Assembly (NCBI RefSeq): GCF_007988805.1
Contig: NZ_BJUV01000015.1
Coordinates: 1 to 64,000 of the forward strand
Direction: 5' to 3'
Length of the DNA stretch: 64,000 nucleotides
Source: Frigoribacterium faeni
Lineage (GTDB): Bacteria; Actinomycetota; Actinomycetes; Actinomycetales; Microbacteriaceae
This document shows positions 23,661-32,792 of the stretch, piece by piece (positions within the stretch are counted from its first letter, which is position 1; each line of letters opens with the position of its first letter). A program made the translations under genes and the position numbers. A model generated the notes under the pieces. That model searched no databases, was not told the DNA's origin, and was given only the letters and a program-made list of their open reading frames with translations.

Positions 23661-25418
23661 GTGAACGAATCGTCAGGGCACGACGACGCCCTGAGCCGCG
23701 ACGACGTGCGCGCGGCGTACGAGGACGACCCCACCTGGGCTCTGCTCCGCAGCTACAACAGCCGCTGGATGCTGCCGCTGTTCTCCCGCCACCTCGAGCA
23801 CGCCGAGGGGCCCGTCTCGGCCGACTGGTTCCACCAGCGGGTCGCCGTCGCCCTGGAGCGGAACGCGGCCGAGCAGGCCGAGCAGCAGGCGTCCGCCGCG
23901 CAGGCGGGAGAGCACGGCACGCTCCCGGAGGAGGCGCGGGTCGCGTCGACCGCGGACCCCGCCGCTCCGGGCGCCCCGGCCCCGCACTCTCCCGACGCGG
24001 CCGCCCCCGATCCGGCCGCCGCCCCCGACGCCCGCACGACGCCCGCCGACTACTGCCGGAGCTGGGTCGACAGCCGCTGGCTGATCCGCACCCGCGCCTC
24101 CTCGGAGGACGGCGACGGGCGCGGCGACGACGGCGGTCGCGACCGCACCGGCGGCGACTCCCGTGCCCGCTACCGTCTCTCGCCGCACGCGCTCAAGGCG
24201 CTGCGGATCGTCCGCGAGCTCGTCGAGCAGGACAACGCGGTCAGCGAGGCCCGCCTCGGCAGCATCGCGCACGCCGTCGGCCAGCTGGCCGGCCTCGCCG
24301 ACCCGAGCCGCGACGCCCAGGTCGCCCGCCTCGACGAGCAGATCGCCGAGCTGCAGCGCCGTCGTGACCAGATCGAGCAGCATGGCACCGAGCCGGTCAG
24401 CCCGGACGTGCTCAAGCGCCAGGTGCGCGAGGTCGTCCGGCTGACCGCGTCGCTGCCCGAGGACTTCCGTCAGCTCAGCCAGATGGTCGAGCAGCGGCAC
24501 CGGCTCGTCGCCCGCAGCGCGTCGATGGACCACGTCGGCAAGGGCGCCCTGGTCGAGCAGTACCTCCGCGAGAACGACCTGCTCGAGCAGACCCCCGAGG
24601 GCCGGGCCTACCGCGGCTTCGCGCAGATGCTGTCGTCACGCGAGATCGACGTGATGCGGGCCGACATCGACGCGATCCTCTCGCACCCGGCCGCCGCCCG
24701 GCACCTGACGGACCGGCAGCGCACGCAGCTCGAGTCGCTCATCTCGTCGCTGCTCGCCGAGGAGCAGTCCGTCCAGGAGACGTACGGGCGCTGGACGTCG
24801 TCGCTCCGCCGGTTCCTCAGTCGCACGAGCGCCGAGAGGCACCAGCGGCTGCTCACCCTCGCCGAGCGCGCCCTGCACGCCGGCGGCGTCTGGGCCGAGC
24901 GCCGCCCCGGTCCCGCGACGATGCCCGAGGACGTCCTCGGTCTCGGCGCCCTCGACGTGGTCGACATCAGCCAGGCGCAGCTCCACAGCGATCGCGGCCG
25001 TCCGACGGTCGACGTGACGGTCTCCGACGCCGGGGCGAGCCTGCCCGCCGCCGACCGCGCCGCGTTGCGCCTCACCTCCGGCACGAGCACCGCGGCCGTC
25101 TCGGCGACGCTCGACCGGCTGCTGCTCGAGCGCGACGAGGTCACCAGCGCCGACGTCTACGAGGCCACCGAGCCCGAGTTCCGCCGCCTCGGGCTCGTGC
25201 TGAGCATGCTCGACCTCGCACTCGACCGGGGCGCCGTCGACGACGAGACCGAGACGGTCACGCTGTCGGCGGACGACGCGAGCCCCGGAGGCGCGGGTCG
25301 GCGGGTCACGCTGCCCCGCCTGGTCTTCCGTCGCCACGCCGCGCCCGACGACGCGGCCGCGCCCGCTCCCGCCCCCACCCCCGCTCTCGCGCCGCACGAC
25401 CCGAAGGACCCCGCATGA
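23661..25418 (+). CDS. jetA: Wadjet/Mks subunit JetA (DUF3375; MksF/kleisin-like)
   Basis: 585 residues. The start WALLRSYNSRWMLPLFSRHLE and the long winged-helix/coiled-coil body with DQIEQHGTE and FRQLSQMVEQRHRLV match DUF3375. This is the kleisin-type subunit that closes the SMC ring in Wadjet (JetABCD) and MksBEF complexes. GTG at 23661 has GGAGG 8 bases upstream; a TTG one codon before is an alternative. Two copies of the GC oligomer are read in frame inside a Pro/Ala-rich insertion (EEARVAS and TRASSED, around residues 90-150), a poorly conserved loop. It overlaps jetB by 4 bases. Known role of the complex: recognising and cleaving or restricting plasmid DNA, or organising chromosomes. 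Confidence 0.88.
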   Translation: MNESSGHDDALSRDDVRAAYEDDPTWALLRSYNSRWMLPLFSRHLEHAEGPVSADWFHQRVAVALERNAAEQAEQQASAAQAGEHGTLPEEARVASTADPAAPGAPAPHSPDAAAPDPAAAPDARTTPADYCRSWVDSRWLIRTRASSEDGDGRGDDGGRDRTGGDSRARYRLSPHALKALRIVRELVEQDNAVSEARLGSIAHAVGQLAGLADPSRDAQVARLDEQIAELQRRRDQIEQHGTEPVSPDVLKRQVREVVRLTASLPEDFRQLSQMVEQRHRLVARSASMDHVGKGALVEQYLRENDLLEQTPEGRAYRGFAQMLSSREIDVMRADIDAILSHPAAARHLTDRQRTQLESLISSLLAEEQSVQETYGRWTSSLRRFLSRTSAERHQRLLTLAERALHAGGVWAERRPGPATMPEDVLGLGALDVVDISQAQLHSDRGRPTVDVTVSDAGASLPAADRAALRLTSGTSTAAVSATLDRLLLERDEVTSADVYEATEPEFRRLGLVLSMLDLALDRGAVDDETETVTLSADDASPGGAGRRVTLPRLVFRRHAAPDDAAAPAPAPTPALAPHDPKDPA

Positions 25419-26311
25419 CCCCCGCATCGCCGCTCGACGAGTCCCCGGGGTCGGACGAGACCCGCGCCTCCTCCGCCTTCGAGGCCTCGGACCCGCCCGG
25501 GGCCGGGACCGACGTCGGCGACCTCGACGCCCGCGCCGACGCCGGGCTGCGCGCACCGGACGAGCTGCCGCTCGCCGGCCGGAAGGCGCTCGTCACCCTG
25601 CTGACGCACCGCTTCGTCTCCCGGGCGAAGCAGGGCGAGGCCTGGGCCGGCCTGCTGGCCTACGAGCCCGAGATCCGGGCGCGACTCGACGAGATGTTCC
25701 TCGTGCTGACGGTCGACCACGAGTACGAGGTGGCCTTCAAGCGCCAGAGCGGGCGGGACGACGTCCCCGTGCTGCTGCGACGGGAGAAGCCGCTGTCGCG
25801 CGACGCGTCGCTGCTGATGGTCTTCCTGCGCCGCGAGCACGCGTACAGCGACGCGCGGGACGAGGCCGTCGTGGTGTCCCGCGACCAGGTCGCCGAGTTC
25901 CTGAGCCGGTACCACGACGACGCCGGGCAGGACGAGATCCGCTCGATGCGACGGGTCGACGCGGCCATCGCCGCGATGGTGCACCGCGACCTCCTCGAGC
26001 CCGAGCCCGACGACCCGAGCCTGTTCGTCGTCGCCCCGGCGATCGTCCCGCTGATCACCGTCGAGCAGCTCGCGCACGTCGAGCGGGTGTTCCTCGAGGC
26101 GGCGGGGGCGGAGGCGCCGGCCGACGAGCCCGACGCCTCGATCGACGGCGCAGCCGAACCCGACGCCCTCGACGACGACGCCGGCGACGAACCCGGGCAC
26201 GCCGACGACGGCGCCGACTCCGACTCCGGCGACCCCGACGACACCGCCGAGCCCGACCCCACCGCCGTCGCCCTCGACCTCCCCCTCGACCCGGAAGCAG
26301 ACCAGGCATGA
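25415..26311 (+). CDS. jetB: Wadjet/Mks subunit JetB (DUF4194; MksE/KITE-like)
   Basis: 298 residues. The core from LPLAGRKALVTLLTHRFVSR through DEMFLVLTVDHEYEVAFKRQ, then the paired winged helices up to EQLAHVERVFLEAA, fits DUF4194, the KITE-type subunit that binds kleisin. The first 45 residues, with the in-frame oligomer peptide TRASS, and the last 70 (Asp/Glu/Pro-rich) are probably disordered extensions. ATG overlaps the jetA stop (ATGA) and its stop overlaps the jetC start the same way, so the three subunits are coupled. Confidence 0.88.
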   Translation: MTPASPLDESPGSDETRASSAFEASDPPGAGTDVGDLDARADAGLRAPDELPLAGRKALVTLLTHRFVSRAKQGEAWAGLLAYEPEIRARLDEMFLVLTVDHEYEVAFKRQSGRDDVPVLLRREKPLSRDASLLMVFLRREHAYSDARDEAVVVSRDQVAEFLSRYHDDAGQDEIRSMRRVDAAIAAMVHRDLLEPEPDDPSLFVVAPAIVPLITVEQLAHVERVFLEAAGAEAPADEPDASIDGAAEPDALDDDAGDEPGHADDGADSDSGDPDDTAEPDPTAVALDLPLDPEADQA

Positions 26312-29300
26312 CCCCGGCCGACCCCACCACGCCTCTCGCCGACGAGACCGGCGCCTCCCCGGATCTCGGCATGTTCCACTCGGGCCAGTACCGCATCGAG
26401 CTCGTCCAGCTGCTCAACTGGGGCGGCTACGCGGGGCTGCACCGCATGCCCGTCGGCCGGGGCGGCATCGCGATCCTCGGACCGACCGGACGGGGCAAGT
26501 CGACCGTGCTCGACGCGATGGCCGCGGTCATCATGCCGAACCCGCAGGAGTTCAACCGCGCCGCCCGCGACGACACCCGTCAGCGCTCCGAGCGCACCGT
26601 CTACAGCTACGCCCGCGGCAAGACCGACGAGGTCCGCGACGCCGGCACGGACCGGACGACGACCCGGTTCCTCCGTCCGCTCGGTCAGGCGTTCGCCAGC
26701 GGGGCCGCGATCACGTACAGCACCGAGCTCGGTCAGACCGTCACCGCGGTGCGCCTGGCCTGGATCGCCGCCGACACCTCGAGCCAGGACGACGTGACCC
26801 AGGCGAGCGTCTACCTGCTCGTGCGCGGCCGCTTCGACCTGAGCCGGCTGAACGACGTCCAGCGCGACGGCACGAGCACCAGTCCGCTGACCAAGGGCTC
26901 CCTCGGCCGCCTGGTCGACCCGACCCGCGACCTGGTCACCTACTCGCAGCCGGAGCTGCGGGTGCAGCTCTGCGCCGAGCTCGGCATCGGCGGCAGCGAC
27001 GAGTCGCAGCTGAAGGCCCTCACCCTCCTGCGCCGGGCCCAGGCGTCGAAGGGCGTCTTCTCGATCGACGAGCTGTTCAAGCAGTTCGTGCTGACGCAGC
27101 CCAAGGCGCTCAGCCGGTGGGAGACCACGCTCGGCACCTACCGGGAGGCCTCCGCGCTCTACGACGTCTTCGAGACCACGCGCAAGAAGCTCGGCGTGCT
27201 CGAGAACGTGCCCGCGCTCGCCGACCGGTACGAGCTCGCCGGGCACGACGCCTCGGCGAAGCGCCGCCTCCTGGTCGACGACGCCGGCCCCAGCCGGCTG
27301 CGCGTCTGGCTGGCCGAGAGGGTCGGCACCTGGGTCAGCGGCGAGGTCGACCGGGTGACGGCCGACAAGCGCCGGCAGACCGAGGCGAGGAGGAGCGCCG
27401 CGGCGGACGAGGACGCCGCGTTCCGGGGCCGCGAGAGCGCCCTGGCCCAGATCGCCGATCTCGGGGGCGACCCGTCGCAGTCGCTCCGCGAGCACGTGGC
27501 GCACGCCGAGCGAGGGCTCGCGCAGATCGAGCGCGAGCGCGGCCGGCTGGCCGCCGTGCTCGACGGCACCGGCGAGGCCCTGCCGCGGTCCGCCGACGAG
27601 CTCGCCGCCCTGCAGCAGCGGGCCGACCGGCTCGCCGACGACGACGCCGTCGCCCGCCGGGCCGGCGCCGACGAGCGAACCGAGCTGGCCGCGCGCATCA
27701 GCGAGGCGAAACGCGCCCTCGCCGCACGTCGGAAGCAGAAGCAGTCCTTCGAGCAGCGACGCAGCAACGTGCCCGACGACGCCGTCGAGCGACGCCTGCG
27801 GATCGCTCAGGGGGCCGGCGTGCCGGTCTCGAGCCTGCCCTACGCCGGCGAGCTGTTCGAGGTCGCCCCGGAGCACGAGGGCTGGTCGGTGGCGATCGAG
27901 CGGGTGCTCGGCGATCTGGCCACGCACCTCCTGGTCGACCGTGCGCGGTTCGACGCGGTGCGCCGCTTCGTCAACGACAACGACATGCGGGGGCGCCTCA
28001 CGCTCGTGCCCGCGACGACCGGCGTCCGCCCGCAGCGCGAGGCGATCGAGCGGACCGTGCCGGCGATGGTGCAGCTCGACGAGTCGAGCCCGTTCGCCGG
28101 CTGGCTGCACGACGAGCTGGTCGGCGACCGCAGCGTGCTCTGCGTCGAGGAGGCCGATCAGCTCGACGAGCCGCTGCCCTCCGGGGTCACGGGCGCCGTG
28201 ACCCGCACGGGCCTCCGCACCGGGGCGCGCCGTCGCGTGGTCAAGGACGACCGGCGCACGCGCTCGTGGATCGGCTTCGACAACGGCTCGCGCATCTCCG
28301 AGTTGTCCGACGAGATCGCGACCCTCGACCGCGACCTGGCCGAGGCCCGCGCCGCCTGGGACGCCGCCGAGGCCGAGGCGACCGAGCGTCGCCGCGTGCA
28401 GCAGGCCGTGGCGCGGTCGACGGAGTTCACCTGGGCCGACCTCGACGCCGCCCCCGCCCGGCGGCGCCTCGACGAGCTGACCGCGCAGCTCGACCGTCTC
28501 GCCACCGAGCGGCCCGAGATCGGCACGCTGCAGGCGGAGGCGGCGAAGCACGACGACGACCGGCTCGCCGCCGTGCGACGCGGCTCGGCCGTGCAGCAGC
28601 TGCTCGACCAGCTCGAGGCGACGCACGCCACCCTCGTCGACATCGAGGACGCCTTCAGCGACGCCCTGGCGCTGGCCGAGGCCGAGCCGCTCACCGACGA
28701 CGAGCGCGCGCTGCTCGCCCCGCTGCCGTTCGCGGCACCCCGCGAGGTCGCCGACGTCGAGCGCGCCTACCGCGACGCCGCCGCCCAGCTGCGCTCCCAG
28801 GTCGACGCCCACGATCGGGAGCGGAGCCAGACCGAGAACACGCTGGTCGTGGTCTTCGAGCGCTACCTCGAGCTCGACCGCTCGGCCGGCATCGACGCCA
28901 CGATCGACAGCCTGCCCGCCGTGCGGGCGATCCATCGGACCCTGCTCGACGACGACCTGCCCCAGGCGAAGCAGCGCTGGCTGGAGAAGGCCGGCAGCGA
29001 CATGGGCGACAGCCTCCGGGCGCTCCTCGTGCAGATCGAGGAGGACGGCCACGTGATCAGGCGCGGCGTCCGGCCGATCTCGCAGGCGCTGCGGGCCATC
29101 GAGTTCCGTCAGGGGTCGACGCTCGACATCGAGCCCCGGCCGGTGTCGAACGGCGACCTGCAGGAGTTCCGGCGGACGCTGCGCGAGCACACGTCGGGGG
29201 CCGCCGGCGACGCGACCCGCGCCTCCTCGGATCCCGACGTCGTCGAGCGGCGGTTCCTCGCCCTGCGGCACGACCTCGCGCACCTCGAGGAGCGCTCGCG

Positions 29301-29772
29301 GGCGGGCGAGGCGTGGCGCCGCCGGGTCCTCGACGCGCGCGAGCACTACCAGTTCCGGGCGATCGAGACGCGTCGGGACGGCACGCAGATCGTGCACGAG
29401 GGCGTGGCCGGCAAATCGGGCGGCGAGGGGCAGGAGCTGATCGCGTTCGTGCTCGGCGCGGCCCTGAGGTTCCGGCTGGGCGACGGCACCGACCGGGTGC
29501 CGACCTACGCGCCGATCGTGCTCGACGAGGGCTTCGTCAAGGCCGACAACGAATACACCGGTCGGTCGTTGGCGGCCTTCCGGTCGTTGGGGTTCCAGCT
29601 CGTCGTCGGCGCGCCGCGCGACAAGGTCAACGCGTTCGAGCAGCACGTCGAGAGCGTCGCGTACATCTCGAGCGACCCGTCGGACCCCGAGCTGTCGCGC
29701 ATCTACCCCCTCACGATCCGCCAGGCGATGGAGGTCGAGCGGCACGGTCTCGACCCCGCCGCGCTCGACTGA
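26308..29772 (+). CDS. jetC: Wadjet/Mks SMC-like ATPase JetC (MksB-like)
   Basis: 1154 residues. Walker A GPTGRGKST (58-66) follows the N-terminal strand pattern YRIELVQLLNWGGY typical of MukB/MksB/JetC heads. A long coiled-coil arm runs from about 330 to 900 with a hinge-like break. The C-terminal head has signature KSGGEGQ (1036-1042) and Walker B PIVLDEGF (about 1069-1076), then a D-loop-like region. It is an ATP-driven loop-extruding motor in characterised systems. The oligomer appears in frame (DATRASSDP, near 970) in a head insertion. A convergent hairpin follows. No jetD (DUF3322/DUF2220 toprim nuclease) lies on either side, so DNA cleavage activity cannot be assumed. Confidence 0.9.
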   Translation: MTPADPTTPLADETGASPDLGMFHSGQYRIELVQLLNWGGYAGLHRMPVGRGGIAILGPTGRGKSTVLDAMAAVIMPNPQEFNRAARDDTRQRSERTVYSYARGKTDEVRDAGTDRTTTRFLRPLGQAFASGAAITYSTELGQTVTAVRLAWIAADTSSQDDVTQASVYLLVRGRFDLSRLNDVQRDGTSTSPLTKGSLGRLVDPTRDLVTYSQPELRVQLCAELGIGGSDESQLKALTLLRRAQASKGVFSIDELFKQFVLTQPKALSRWETTLGTYREASALYDVFETTRKKLGVLENVPALADRYELAGHDASAKRRLLVDDAGPSRLRVWLAERVGTWVSGEVDRVTADKRRQTEARRSAAADEDAAFRGRESALAQIADLGGDPSQSLREHVAHAERGLAQIERERGRLAAVLDGTGEALPRSADELAALQQRADRLADDDAVARRAGADERTELAARISEAKRALAARRKQKQSFEQRRSNVPDDAVERRLRIAQGAGVPVSSLPYAGELFEVAPEHEGWSVAIERVLGDLATHLLVDRARFDAVRRFVNDNDMRGRLTLVPATTGVRPQREAIERTVPAMVQLDESSPFAGWLHDELVGDRSVLCVEEADQLDEPLPSGVTGAVTRTGLRTGARRRVVKDDRRTRSWIGFDNGSRISELSDEIATLDRDLAEARAAWDAAEAEATERRRVQQAVARSTEFTWADLDAAPARRRLDELTAQLDRLATERPEIGTLQAEAAKHDDDRLAAVRRGSAVQQLLDQLEATHATLVDIEDAFSDALALAEAEPLTDDERALLAPLPFAAPREVADVERAYRDAAAQLRSQVDAHDRERSQTENTLVVVFERYLELDRSAGIDATIDSLPAVRAIHRTLLDDDLPQAKQRWLEKAGSDMGDSLRALLVQIEEDGHVIRRGVRPISQALRAIEFRQGSTLDIEPRPVSNGDLQEFRRTLREHTSGAAGDATRASSDPDVVERRFLALRHDLAHLEERSRAGEAWRRRVLDAREHYQFRAIETRRDGTQIVHEGVAGKSGGEGQELIAFVLGAALRFRLGDGTDRVPTYAPIVLDEGFVKADNEYTGRSLAAFRSLGFQLVVGAPRDKVNAFEQHVESVAYISSDPSDPELSRIYPLTIRQAMEVERHGLDPAALD

Positions 29773-29821: not shown

Positions 29822-30454
29822 TCAGCCCGTGAAGGAGGCGCCGGTCTCGTGCTCGAGGAACGTGCACATCCACTGCAGCGCCAGCTCGCTCGTCAGCCCG
29901 GGAGCCTTCTGCGCGAGCTGCGTGGCGAGGCCGTCGCTGTAGGCGGCCAGCTTGAGGGCGAGGGCGGAGGGATCGGCGGTGGTGAAGCGGCCGTCCGCGA
30001 CGCCGCGCCGCAGGGTGCGGGTCAGGCAGGCCTCCCAGACCCGGATCCGCTCGACGTACTCGGCGGCGACGGCGGGCTTGCGGGCCACGGCCGTCCAGTA
30101 GTCCGACCAGAGCCGCCAGTGCTCGTCCGTCTCGTCCGTCGCCGCGAAGAGCGGATCGACCAGCATCCGGACGCCGACCACGGGGTCGGGCTCGGCGTCG
30201 ACGGCCTCGATGATCGAGGAGTAGAACCGCGCCGTCTCGAGCACGACGACCTCGTTCAGGATCTCGGCGACGCTCGCGAAGTGGTAGGTGACCGTGCCGA
30301 TCGACACGCCGGCCCCGGCCGCGATGTCCCGCAGGCGGGTGGCCCCGAGCCCGTCGCGCAGGATGACCCCGCGCGCGGCCTCGACGATCAGCGCCCGGCG
30401 CACGGCCGGCTTCTGCCGCGTGCCCGGGGGCGGTGTCGCCGCCGCCGCGCTCAC
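29822..30454 (-). CDS. TetR/AcrR-family transcriptional regulator
   Basis: 210 residues from a GTG whose first bases overlap the hydrolase stop (GTGA). HTH: RDGLGATRLRDIAAGAGVSI then GTVTYHFASVAEIL. The C-terminal ligand domain ends EHETGASFTG. Last gene of a six-gene leftward operon for a peptide-type importer and hydrolase. The inverted repeat TTATCGTT-N6-AACGATAA directly in front of the operon is a likely binding site, giving negative autoregulation of the whole unit; inferred from position. Confidence 0.87.
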   Translation of the reverse strand: MSAAAATPPPGTRQKPAVRRALIVEAARGVILRDGLGATRLRDIAAGAGVSIGTVTYHFASVAEILNEVVVLETARFYSSIIEAVDAEPDPVVGVRMLVDPLFAATDETDEHWRLWSDYWTAVARKPAVAAEYVERIRVWEACLTRTLRRGVADGRFTTADPSALALKLAAYSDGLATQLAQKAPGLTSELALQWMCTFLEHETGASFTG

Positions 30455-32792
30455 GCCGACGTCCGCGGCACGCGCTCGTCGAACGAGCGCTCGGCGACCA
30501 GCACGACCTCGGCCTCGGGCCCGCCGTCGCGCGCCCACGCCGTGACGGTGTTCTCGACCCGGAACTCGGCGGCCGACGCCGTCACCCGCGAGCTCGTCTC
30601 GAGCCAGGCCCGCCAATCGGGCTTCTCGAGCCCGATCGCCCAGCGCGACTCGGCGGACGCCGACAGCGGGTCGCCGTCGACGATGCGGTAGGTCTCACGG
30701 CTGTCCTCGGTGAAGACGAGCCCGTCGGGGTAGACGCGCCCGCCGCCGTAGCCGGGATCGACGTCGAGCACCCACTCGCCCGTGCCCACGTCGTGCGACA
30801 CGCTGCGCTGCGGCAGGTCCGAGGTCGCCGGCAGGGCGCGGATCGCCAGGGGCTCCGCCCGCTGAGGGGCCTCGAAGACGATGCCGTCGTCGACCGGCCC
30901 CTCGTCGCGCCCCCGGGTCCAGACGGGCAGGGTCACGCTGCTGCGCTCGGGTGCGACGGTCAGGGTCGCCTCGACGGGGTGCGGCCAGACCCACGGCCAG
31001 TAGGCCGACGAGACGGCGATCCGGAGGCGGTGGCCGGCCGGGAGGGAGTGCCCGGTCGAGACCAGCTCGACCCGCACGGTCTGCTCGACCCGCGCCTCCA
31101 TCGGGTCGTCGGCGCGATCGCGCCCGTTCCTCTTGTTCAGGTTGAGCACTCCCCGGGTCACGAGGGTGGAGGCGCCGTCGGGGGCGACGTCGCAGAGCCG
31201 CACGATGACGGTGGCGTCGGGCACGTCGCTCGTCACGGCGAGGTCGACGACGACCCGGCCGAGCAGGTCGAGGGGCGCGTCGCCGCCGTCGCCGACCACC
31301 AGGTCGAAGCAGACCGAGCGGCCGTCCTCCGCGCGCTGATCCGGCGGCAGGTCGGTGGCGTTGCCGAACGGGAAGAACCGGCCCGCATCGAGCCCGGTGC
31401 TCTGCGGCGAGCGGACGACGACGTCGCCGTGCCCGCCGCCGCGCAGCGCGCTCAGCGGCACGGTGCGGGCGTCGGTCTCCCGTGCCGGCCAGGACGACGC
31501 CGCGACCCAGCGCCCCGTGCGGTTCGCGTAGTAGGTCGCCGGCGGCTCGGAGTCGTTGATCCAGGCGCGGAGGGCGGGCTCCTCGTCGACGCCGGTGGGG
31601 ATGCCCTGCAGCCAGCGGTCCCACCAGCGCAGGGTCTCCTGCAGGAACCCGATGCCCGGTCCGGGAGCGAGCCCGCGGTCCGGGTACTGGTGCGACCAGG
31701 GTCCGATGATGCCCTTGACCGGGGCGTCGACGTTCTCGACCAGACGAAGGACCGCGTCGCGGTACGGGTCGGCCCAGCCGCCGACGGCGAGCACGGCGGC
31801 GCGGATCGACGAGTGGTCCTCGCAGACGCTGCCGTGACGCCAGTAGTCGTCGCGCTCCTGGTGCGAGAGCCAGGTGGTCGTCATCGGGCGGTTGTGCTCG
31901 AGGCGCTCGCGCCAGCGGGCGATCCAGTCGGCCCCGACGACCTCCGGCCGCGGGGGTCGCGAGTTGAAGGCGAACATGGTGCCGCCCCACGAGGCCATGT
32001 CGATGCCGAGCACGGCGCCGCCCATGTAGTGCACGTCGTTGTCGTAGCGGTCGTCGGTCGAGCAGACGGTGACGATCGCCTTGAGCGCGGCGGGGGCGCG
32101 GCCGGCGAGCTGGAGGGCGTTGAACCCGCCCCACGAGATGCCGAACGCGCCGACGGCGCCGGTCGACCAGGGTCGCGCGGCGAGCCACTCGATCAGGGCG
32201 ACGCCGTCGGCGAGCTCCTGCTCGGAGTACTCGTCGTCGAACAGCCCGTCGCTCGACCCGGTGCCGCGGATGTCGACCCGGACCGAGGCATAGCCGCGGG
32301 CGGCGTACCAGGGGTGCCGCTCGCTGTCCCGCGGGGCGGTCCAGTCGTCGAGGCGGTAGGGCAGGTACTCGAGCAGCACGGGCACCGGCTCGTCGGTGAT
32401 CGGCGCCCAGATGCGGGCGTGCAGCCGGGTGCCGTCGGGCATCGGCACCCACTCGTCGCGGACGGCGACCGGCAGGACGCCCTGCGCGTTCAGCTCGCGG
32501 GCGCCGGCCTGGACCCGGGCGTCGTCGAGGAGGCGCGCCTCGGCTCGTCGACGCCGCTCGCGATCGGCCTCGACCTCGGCCCGGTCGGGGAACGGGAGCT
32601 CACGGAGGACCCGGTCGCCCGTCCCGTCGCCGCCGCCGCCGTCGGCTGCTCCGGACTCCTGCCGCCGCTCGGTGCCGCCCACGCGATCCGCCGCCGGATC
32701 TCCGGAGTCGCCGACCCGCGACGGGTCCGGGCGTCCTGAGTTCTCGACCCGCGCCTCCTCGGCTCGTTCGTCCGTGCTCGTGGCGTCGTGGG

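What the first reader, a model, noticed from the sequence alone, without database searches (positions are those of the whole stretch)
23661..29772. Wadjet/Mks operon jetABC lacking the JetD nuclease
DUF3375, DUF4194 and SbcC/MukB-like genes with 4-base overlaps make a complete SMC complex. The expected JetD (DUF3322/DUF2220 toprim nuclease) is absent: upstream is an ATP-grasp gene, downstream a TetR gene in the opposite direction. The catalytic motifs of JetC are intact, so the motor seems functional. Either JetD was lost or moved, or this complex works without cleavage as an MksBEF chromosome organiser or with another effector. The junction after jetC is built of three oligomer copies, a plausible deletion scar.
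Basis: partly seen in the sequence, partly recalled or inferred. Interest (0 to 1): 0.72.

Follow-up and report, generated by a model that had tools for sequence, protein, structure and literature searches.

The report
Wadjet SMC motor without its nuclease
A bacterial DNA-looping machine related to a plasmid-cutting defence has lost its cutting enzyme but is still kept intact, so it probably helps organise the cell's own DNA.

Summary
Window 23661-29772 is a three-gene operon jetA-jetB-jetC (DUF3375, DUF4194, SMC) with two 4-base overlaps and no jetD. No JetD domain or JetD-like protein was found in the own draft genome. The genus is Frigoribacterium. All 16 genomes held carry jetA; the operon is readable to its end in 15, all without jetD. 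The two species that have a JetD carry it in a second, separate jetABCD operon. The same operon in Leifsonia lacks jetD in 10 of 11 genomes. The eleventh has an intact jetD directly after jetC; its sister, about 92% identical on both sides, has some 30 bp there instead. The outgroup Kibdelosporangium has jetD at the same place. jetABC is under purifying selection and lies 47-70 kb from scpA in the 14 genomes where both share a contig. Best reading: a type I Wadjet that lost its nuclease and persists as an MksBEF-like second SMC complex beside Smc-ScpAB. The 'deletion scar' is not supported: it is a hairpin built of a short oligomer with 444 copies in this genome. Nuclease-free Wadjet-group complexes are already in print. 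A role in chromosome organisation is inferred, not shown.

The parts
23661..25418 (+). jetA / mksF: kleisin (DUF3375), GTG start
   Evidence: PF11855 E 2e-66; PADLOC JetA1 986 bits; PDB JetA chains E 2e-19
25415..26311 (+). jetB / mksE: KITE subunit (DUF4194) with a low-confidence N-terminal leader and C-terminal tail
   Evidence: PF13835 E 2e-30; predicted fold matches Wadjet JetB 8as8_C, Z 16.4, rmsd 3.6, 185 aligned; 4-base overlaps on both sides
26308..29772 (+). jetC / mksB: SMC ATPase
   Evidence: PF13555 and PF13558; PDB JetC 8as8_A E 8e-60 over residues 28-1120
26479..26505 (+). Walker A of JetC, GPTGRGKST (motif name from general knowledge)
   Evidence: invariant in the 5-row alignment including one Leifsonia
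29413..29427 (+). ABC signature of JetC, KSGGE (motif name from general knowledge)
   Evidence: invariant in the 5-row alignment
29518..29529 (+). Walker B of JetC, VLDE (motif name from general knowledge)
   Evidence: invariant in the 5-row alignment; PF13558 covers residues 1006-1092
   Evidence: fold -39.8 kcal/mol, z -4.04; inverted repeat 15 nt, 93%; against a terminator: the scan for a hairpin with a T-run finds none
29822..30616 (-). TetR-family regulator (true start probably further in), not part of the operon
   Evidence: PF00440, PF13977
22560..23558 (-). ATP-grasp-like gene, divergent neighbour, not part of the operon
   Evidence: RimK 19.5 bits, below the cut-off of 21; a member of its cluster lies in 10 of 16 fetched genus stretches, not always next to jetA

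Best explanation
This is a type I Wadjet (JetABC) core that descends from a four-gene jetABCD operon and had lost the JetD nuclease before the Frigoribacterium species held here diverged. It has been kept as a three-subunit, nuclease-free SMC complex. Shown by sequence: the three intact genes, no jetD found in the genome nor beside this operon in the genus, jetD at the matching place in relatives, conserved position, purifying selection. Inferred: JetC dimers with JetA (kleisin) and JetB (KITE) use ATP to capture DNA and extrude loops; without JetD no cut follows, so the motor acts on the chromosome as a second condensin beside Smc-ScpAB, in the manner of the MksBEF of Pseudomonas aeruginosa.
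For: (1) JetA in 16 of 16 Frigoribacterium genomes, JetD in 2 of 16 and there in a second operon. (2) Complete three-gene operon and no JetD hit in six frames of the fetched stretch in 15 of 15 loci not cut by a contig end. (3) jetD follows jetC in 2 of 2 Kibdelosporangium loci and in 1 of 11 Leifsonia operons; both JetD Pfam domains in the Leifsonia one and in L142 (L144 not put to Pfam). (4) L169 and its sister L172 match at 92.6% to 6 bp past the jetC stop, then at 92.0% from 1165 bp (L169) or 37 bp (L172) past it. (5) L169 JetD groups with Kibdelosporangium JetD (100/99); JetC/JetD identities of 47.4/45.7% fit the co-divergence of other jetABCD pairs. (6) dN/dS for JetC is 0.05-0.14 in six close Frigoribacterium pairs and 0.30-0.32 in the two pairs with the window. 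(7) The operon lies 47-70 kb from scpA in 14 of 16 genomes, the other two having them on different contigs (positions); ScpA in 16 of 16. (8) No gene besides jetABC recurs in all 16 fetched genus stretches; the next most frequent cluster is in 10. (9) P. [quoted passage not shown] PMC7485682 passages).
Against: No functional data exist. In Leifsonia the operon is patchy (window type in 11 of 28 genomes), more like an accessory system than a core condensin. L169's jetD could be a regain: parsimony needs 2 changes for one loss plus one regain against about 6 independent losses (my count on that tree). The JetB leader motif is retained in 18 of 21 other JetD-less operons (7.0 expected from shuffles), so its erosion in Frigoribacterium does not prove loss of JetD docking. 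JetB evolves fast (dN/dS 0.31-0.48). In C. glutamicum the Mks system acts in plasmid defence, while Smc-ScpAB has the chromosome role (PMC10123090 passages).
Confidence: 0.6

Rival explanations
1. Nuclease-free anti-plasmid complex: JetABC still recognises small circular DNA by full loop extrusion but compacts, silences or mis-segregates it instead of cutting it, as proposed for Smc5/6 on viral circles.
For: Intact motor and purifying selection; patchy presence in Leifsonia resembles a defence system; Smc5/6 model in the review passage (PMC10586767).
Against: Presence in 16 of 16 genomes and a constant position in Frigoribacterium are unusual for a defence system; all four Wadjet subunits were needed to suppress plasmid transformation in B. 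subtilis (review passage).
Confidence: 0.2
2. JetABC works with another effector encoded elsewhere in the genome (a different nuclease or topoisomerase), so it is still a cleaving defence.
For: JetD-less operons elsewhere in the family keep a conserved JetB leader motif (18 of 21), which might serve some partner.
Against: No neighbour recurs in all genus stretches; 10 genes next to JetD-less operons put to Pfam are LacI (2), carboxylesterase, HAD, DUF2231, citrate synthase and response regulator, and 3 without a match; no JetD-like protein in the own genome. Unrelated nucleases elsewhere in the genome were not searched for.
Confidence: 0.12
3. Disarmed remnant: jetD was lost to relieve self-damage or plasmid exclusion, and jetABC is on its way out without a function.
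For: JetABC without JetD recurs: 26 of 46 family JetA hits have no JetD close by; the JetB leader varies freely.
Against: The three reading frames are intact in 15 of 15 complete loci; dN/dS well below 1; ATPase motifs invariant in 5 rows.
Confidence: 0.08

Closest known systems
Wadjet type I, JetABCD (MksFEBG; E. coli GF4-3, P. aeruginosa PA14, C. glutamicum)
   Same: Same three families in the same order with overlapping genes; JetA and JetC sequences and the JetB fold match solved JetABC chains.
   Different: No jetD/mksG found in the operon or the genome.
MksBEF of Pseudomonas aeruginosa
   Same: Kleisin, KITE and SMC subunits beside Smc-ScpAB; [quoted passage not shown] segregation role, passages).
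   Different: A separate actinobacterial lineage; its sequence relation to the P. aeruginosa MksBEF was not tested; no phenotype known. Strain PA14 is described with an mksFEBG operon (PMC10123090 passage).
MukBEF of enterobacteria
   Same: SMC, kleisin and KITE without MksG/JetD (PMC7617805 passages).
   Different: Replaces Smc-ScpAB there (review passage), coexists with ScpA here; the JetB model is closer to JetB (Z 16) than to MukE (Z 11).
Second jetABCD operon of two Frigoribacterium species (L075, L086)
   Same: DUF3375/DUF4194/SMC plus JetD, in the same genus.
   Different: JetC only 29% identical to the window's, on another branch of the tree, and with JetD.

Membership tests
Wadjet type I (JetABCD) | JetA kleisin, DUF3375 | tested here: met
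   PF11855 225 bits, cut-off 28.6; JetA1 in PADLOC
Wadjet type I (JetABCD) | JetB KITE subunit, DUF4194 | tested here: met
   PF13835 106 bits; fold match to 8as8_C, Z 16.4; the model has mean pLDDT 67.5
Wadjet type I (JetABCD) | JetC SMC ATPase with intact motifs | tested here: met
   PF13555, PF13558; motifs invariant in 5 rows; PDB JetC E 8e-60
Wadjet type I (JetABCD) | JetD nuclease (DUF3322 + DUF2220/toprim) in the operon or genome | tested here: not met
Wadjet type I (JetABCD) | cleavage of circular plasmid DNA | not testable with these tools
   needs bench work
MksBEF-type condensin without nuclease | SMC + kleisin + KITE operon without MksG | tested here: met
MksBEF-type condensin without nuclease | coexists with Smc-ScpAB | tested here: met
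   ScpA in 16 of 16 genomes; Smc and ScpB were not searched
MksBEF-type condensin without nuclease | role in chromosome folding or segregation | not testable with these tools
   no phenotype data
MukBEF | belongs to the MukB/MukE/MukF families rather than DUF3375/DUF4194 | tested here: not met
   Pfam at E 0.001 lists only DUF3375, DUF4194, AAA_29, AAA_23 and SbcC_Walker_B for the three proteins

The most novel reading that the evidence does not exclude
In this actinobacterial family Wadjet is repeatedly disarmed. jetD is removed cleanly while jetABC is kept under selection, and in Frigoribacterium the nuclease-free motor has become a fixed chromosomal gene set that handles DNA by loop extrusion alone, either as a second condensin or as a non-cutting silencer of circular DNA. 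The jetD-plus/minus sister pairs (L169/L172 in Leifsonia, L113/L100 in another genus) would catch a defence-to-housekeeping change in the act.
Probability: 0.4. Interest if true: 0.65.

Novelty: new member of a known kind. Interest (0 to 1): 0.42.

Why it matters
It has been proposed that MksBEF and MukBEF condensins arose from Wadjet defence, MksBEF by loss of the nuclease (review passages). This clade gives a close comparison: an outgroup with jetD, a genus where 1 of 11 operons still (or again) has it, and a genus where it is gone and jetABC is universal among the 16 genomes held. Sister pairs that differ at the operon mainly by jetD let the role of JetABC with and without its nuclease be tested in closely related backgrounds.

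Tried and rejected
Deletion scar after jetC: rejected. The repeats form a hairpin, the oligomer is genome-wide, and sister junctions differ.

Trans jetD or another effector next to the operon: searched by two JetD Pfam models, an own JetD profile in six frames of the fetched stretches, and the Leifsonia JetD protein, and by a conserved-neighbour check and Pfam on 10 neighbouring genes from 10 of the 37 JetD-less loci: nothing. The one weak six-frame hit among JetD-less loci was L095, E 0.34.

JetB leader motif as proof of lost JetD docking: the review names an IFDR motif at the JetB N-terminus that contacts JetD. A generous hydrophobic-aromatic-acidic regex hits 10 of 15 JetD-bearing family operons (3.5 expected from shuffled leaders; of the 5 misses two look like wrong starts and three like another JetB type), 2 of 2 Kibdelosporangium (0.7), 1 of 1 Leifsonia with JetD (0.2), 7 of 10 Leifsonia without (2.5), 6 of 15 Frigoribacterium (1.5) and 18 of 21 other JetD-less operons (7.0). 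Read by eye, AFG[DE] is in 10 of 11 Leifsonia (not L167) and 0 of 15 Frigoribacterium; the regex anchor failed in L170 and L174. Since most other JetD-less operons keep the motif, it is no clean JetD marker. That LF.GD or AFGD corresponds to IFDR is my inference; the first residues of the PDB JetB chains were not shown. Inconclusive.

Retention versus regain of jetD in L169: not settled.

Rows left out of counts: three JetA hits below cut-off in the family; four loci without a usable JetC call left out of the 52-row tree (L077, L121, L124, L128).

NCBIfam names neither jetA, jetB nor the L139 JetD and gives jetC only SMC matches far below cut-off. The T-run terminator scan found none. phmmer of JetB alone found no PDB chain; a six-row profile that included it did. 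One search for a published oligomer of this kind listed 10 of 1,160 papers, none of the 10 with 'DNA uptake sequence'; it decides nothing. An earlier count gave 137 as the lowest copy number of the oligomer; the right figure is 141.
Full report
What is there. The window carries jetA (23661-25418), jetB (25415-26311) and jetC (26308-29772) on the + strand, with two 4-base overlaps. Pfam identifies DUF3375, DUF4194 and the two ends of an SbcC/SMC ATPase; PADLOC calls them JetA1, JetB1 and JetC1. JetA and JetC match the solved Wadjet chains by sequence. JetB alone has no sequence match in the PDB, but its predicted fold matches JetB of E. coli and P. aeruginosa (Z 16.4 and 15.8) above MukE (Z about 11); the model is moderate (mean pLDDT 67.5, 89 of 298 residues under 50). 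The ATPase motifs GPTGRGKST, KSGGE and VLDE are invariant in five aligned JetC proteins; the motif names are general knowledge.

JetD is absent. PF09983 finds nothing in the own genome (83 contigs, completeness 99.99 as given by the tool). In the genus both JetD domains occur in 2 of 16 genomes. The intact JetD of the closest relative, used as a query up to E = 1, finds only the same two genomes. In those two (G001, G011) JetD belongs to a second jetABCD operon whose JetC is 29% identical to the window's.

Who has it. A scan of named genomes (21 loci) gives Frigoribacterium records whose contig lengths equal those of the genus genomes (for instance 467643, 1588767 and 1374484 bases), so I take the genus to be Frigoribacterium (Microbacteriaceae). 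The nearest other operons are in Leifsonia (JetC 65-67%) and Kibdelosporangium (46%). All 16 genus genomes have JetA. In 15 the whole operon is readable and ends with jetC; in the 16th (G003) the contig ends after jetA. By the positions the operon lies 47-70 kb from scpA in 14 of 16 genomes; in the other two (G000, G003) they are on different contigs. This points to vertical inheritance at a fixed chromosomal place. In a sample of 394 genomes of the class no other match exceeds 421 bits (the window itself 2330), so the clade seems narrow; that search scored at most two candidates per genome.

JetD was lost. jetD follows jetC in both Kibdelosporangium loci and in one Leifsonia, L169 = L139, L. 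shinshuensis DP-L11; L139 and L142 have both JetD domains. Of 28 Leifsonia genomes 13 have JetA; 11 carry the window's type and 1 of these 11 has jetD beside it. L169 and its sister L172 match at 92.6% through the end of jetC and at 92.0% beyond; between them L169 has jetD and L172 about 30 bp. The L169 JetD is sister to the Kibdelosporangium JetDs (100/99). JetC and JetD have diverged about in step (47.4 and 45.7%), as in other jetABCD pairs, and G+C is alike (jetD 72.4, jetC 72.7%; third positions 0.892 and 0.926). These points favour retention in L169 and several losses, but the JetC tree needs only two changes if jetD was lost once and regained, so I leave this open. On either reading the Frigoribacterium state is most likely derived by loss.

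Not a freak of one genome. In a sample of 199 genomes of the family, 46 JetA hits pass the cut-off; 19 have JetD within 8 kb and 27 do not, one of which (G188) is split over contigs and has a JetD on another contig, leaving 26. One of the 19 (G160) is a fragment. A tree of 52 JetC proteins needs five changes of JetD state, four of them forced by well-supported branches (quick method, with long branches flagged). A second close pair, L113 with and L100 without JetD, matches at 91.7% over the operon. Of 10 genes next to JetD-less operons put to Pfam, 7 match ordinary unrelated families and 3 match none.

Still under selection. NG86 dN/dS for JetC in six close Frigoribacterium pairs is 0.05-0.14; in the two pairs with the window it is 0.30-0.32. 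Over these eight pairs JetA lies at 0.19-0.37 and JetB at 0.31-0.48, its leader and tail being variable. Three Leifsonia pairs give JetC 0.05-0.09. The complex is therefore probably in use.

Mechanism. By its families it should be a DNA loop-extruding SMC complex. Wadjet needs JetD to cut (review passages), so this complex should not cut. Since ScpA is also present (16 of 16), the likeliest role is a second condensin, as for P. aeruginosa MksBEF (passages). A non-cutting action on circular DNA is the main rival. No tool here can decide between them.

The 'scar'. The stretch after jetC contains direct and inverted copies of GGAGGCGCGGGT or near forms. They fold into a 15-bp hairpin between two convergent genes. 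The same oligomer occurs 22 times exactly in the window, and a 13-base form occurs 223 + 221 times in the genome against 2 + 0 for the reversed pattern. It is a genomic feature of Frigoribacterium, not a mark of a deletion.

Against known systems. It fails the JetD criterion of Wadjet and fits MksBEF-type complexes without MksG. Such complexes are in print: the review (passages) derives P. [quoted passage not shown] Its Data S1 may list these operons; I could not read it. Searches showed no held paper on a JetD-less operon in Frigoribacterium, Leifsonia or Microbacteriaceae; of the 19 papers of one search I saw the 10 listed.

Noticed in passing
window, 22 exact copies such as 1911, 5412, 23930, 24090, 25287, 25460, 29215, 29811, 42306, 45815: A dispersed oligomer, consensus about CCGAGGAGGCGCGGGTCG: 41 copies at up to 1 mismatch in the window against 2.95 expected; the 13-mer GGAGGCGCGGGTC has 444 copies in the own genome and 141-553 in each of 16 Frigoribacterium genomes, nearly strand-balanced, reversed control 0-3; no exact GACCCGCGCCTCC in the Leifsonia loci. 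In 16 loci 47 of 60 exact 12-mers lie in called genes, which cover 93% of the bases, in several frames, often read as TRASS, GGAGR or TRASG. It resembles a DNA uptake sequence; function unknown and untested.
   Followed up: partly
L075:5044-6535 and L086: Two Frigoribacterium genomes carry a second jetABCD operon about 33 and 51 kb from the JetD-less one; in G001 its jetA is split into two open frames, a frameshift or a sequencing error.
   Followed up: partly
L113 and L100: A second close pair with and without JetD in another genus of the family, 91.7% identical over jetABC with mostly unrelated flanks.
   Followed up: partly
L091-L112 (without L109): JetD-less operons of other genera keep an LFEGDEG-like motif in the JetB leader (regex 18 of 21, 7.0 expected from shuffles), so the motif may have a role beyond binding JetD.
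   Followed up: partly
window 23900-24150 (jetA) and 25415-25560 (jetB): Alanine/proline/aspartate-rich linkers in JetA and JetB, the JetB leader mostly longer in Frigoribacterium than in Leifsonia, partly containing copies of the dispersed oligomer.
   Followed up: no
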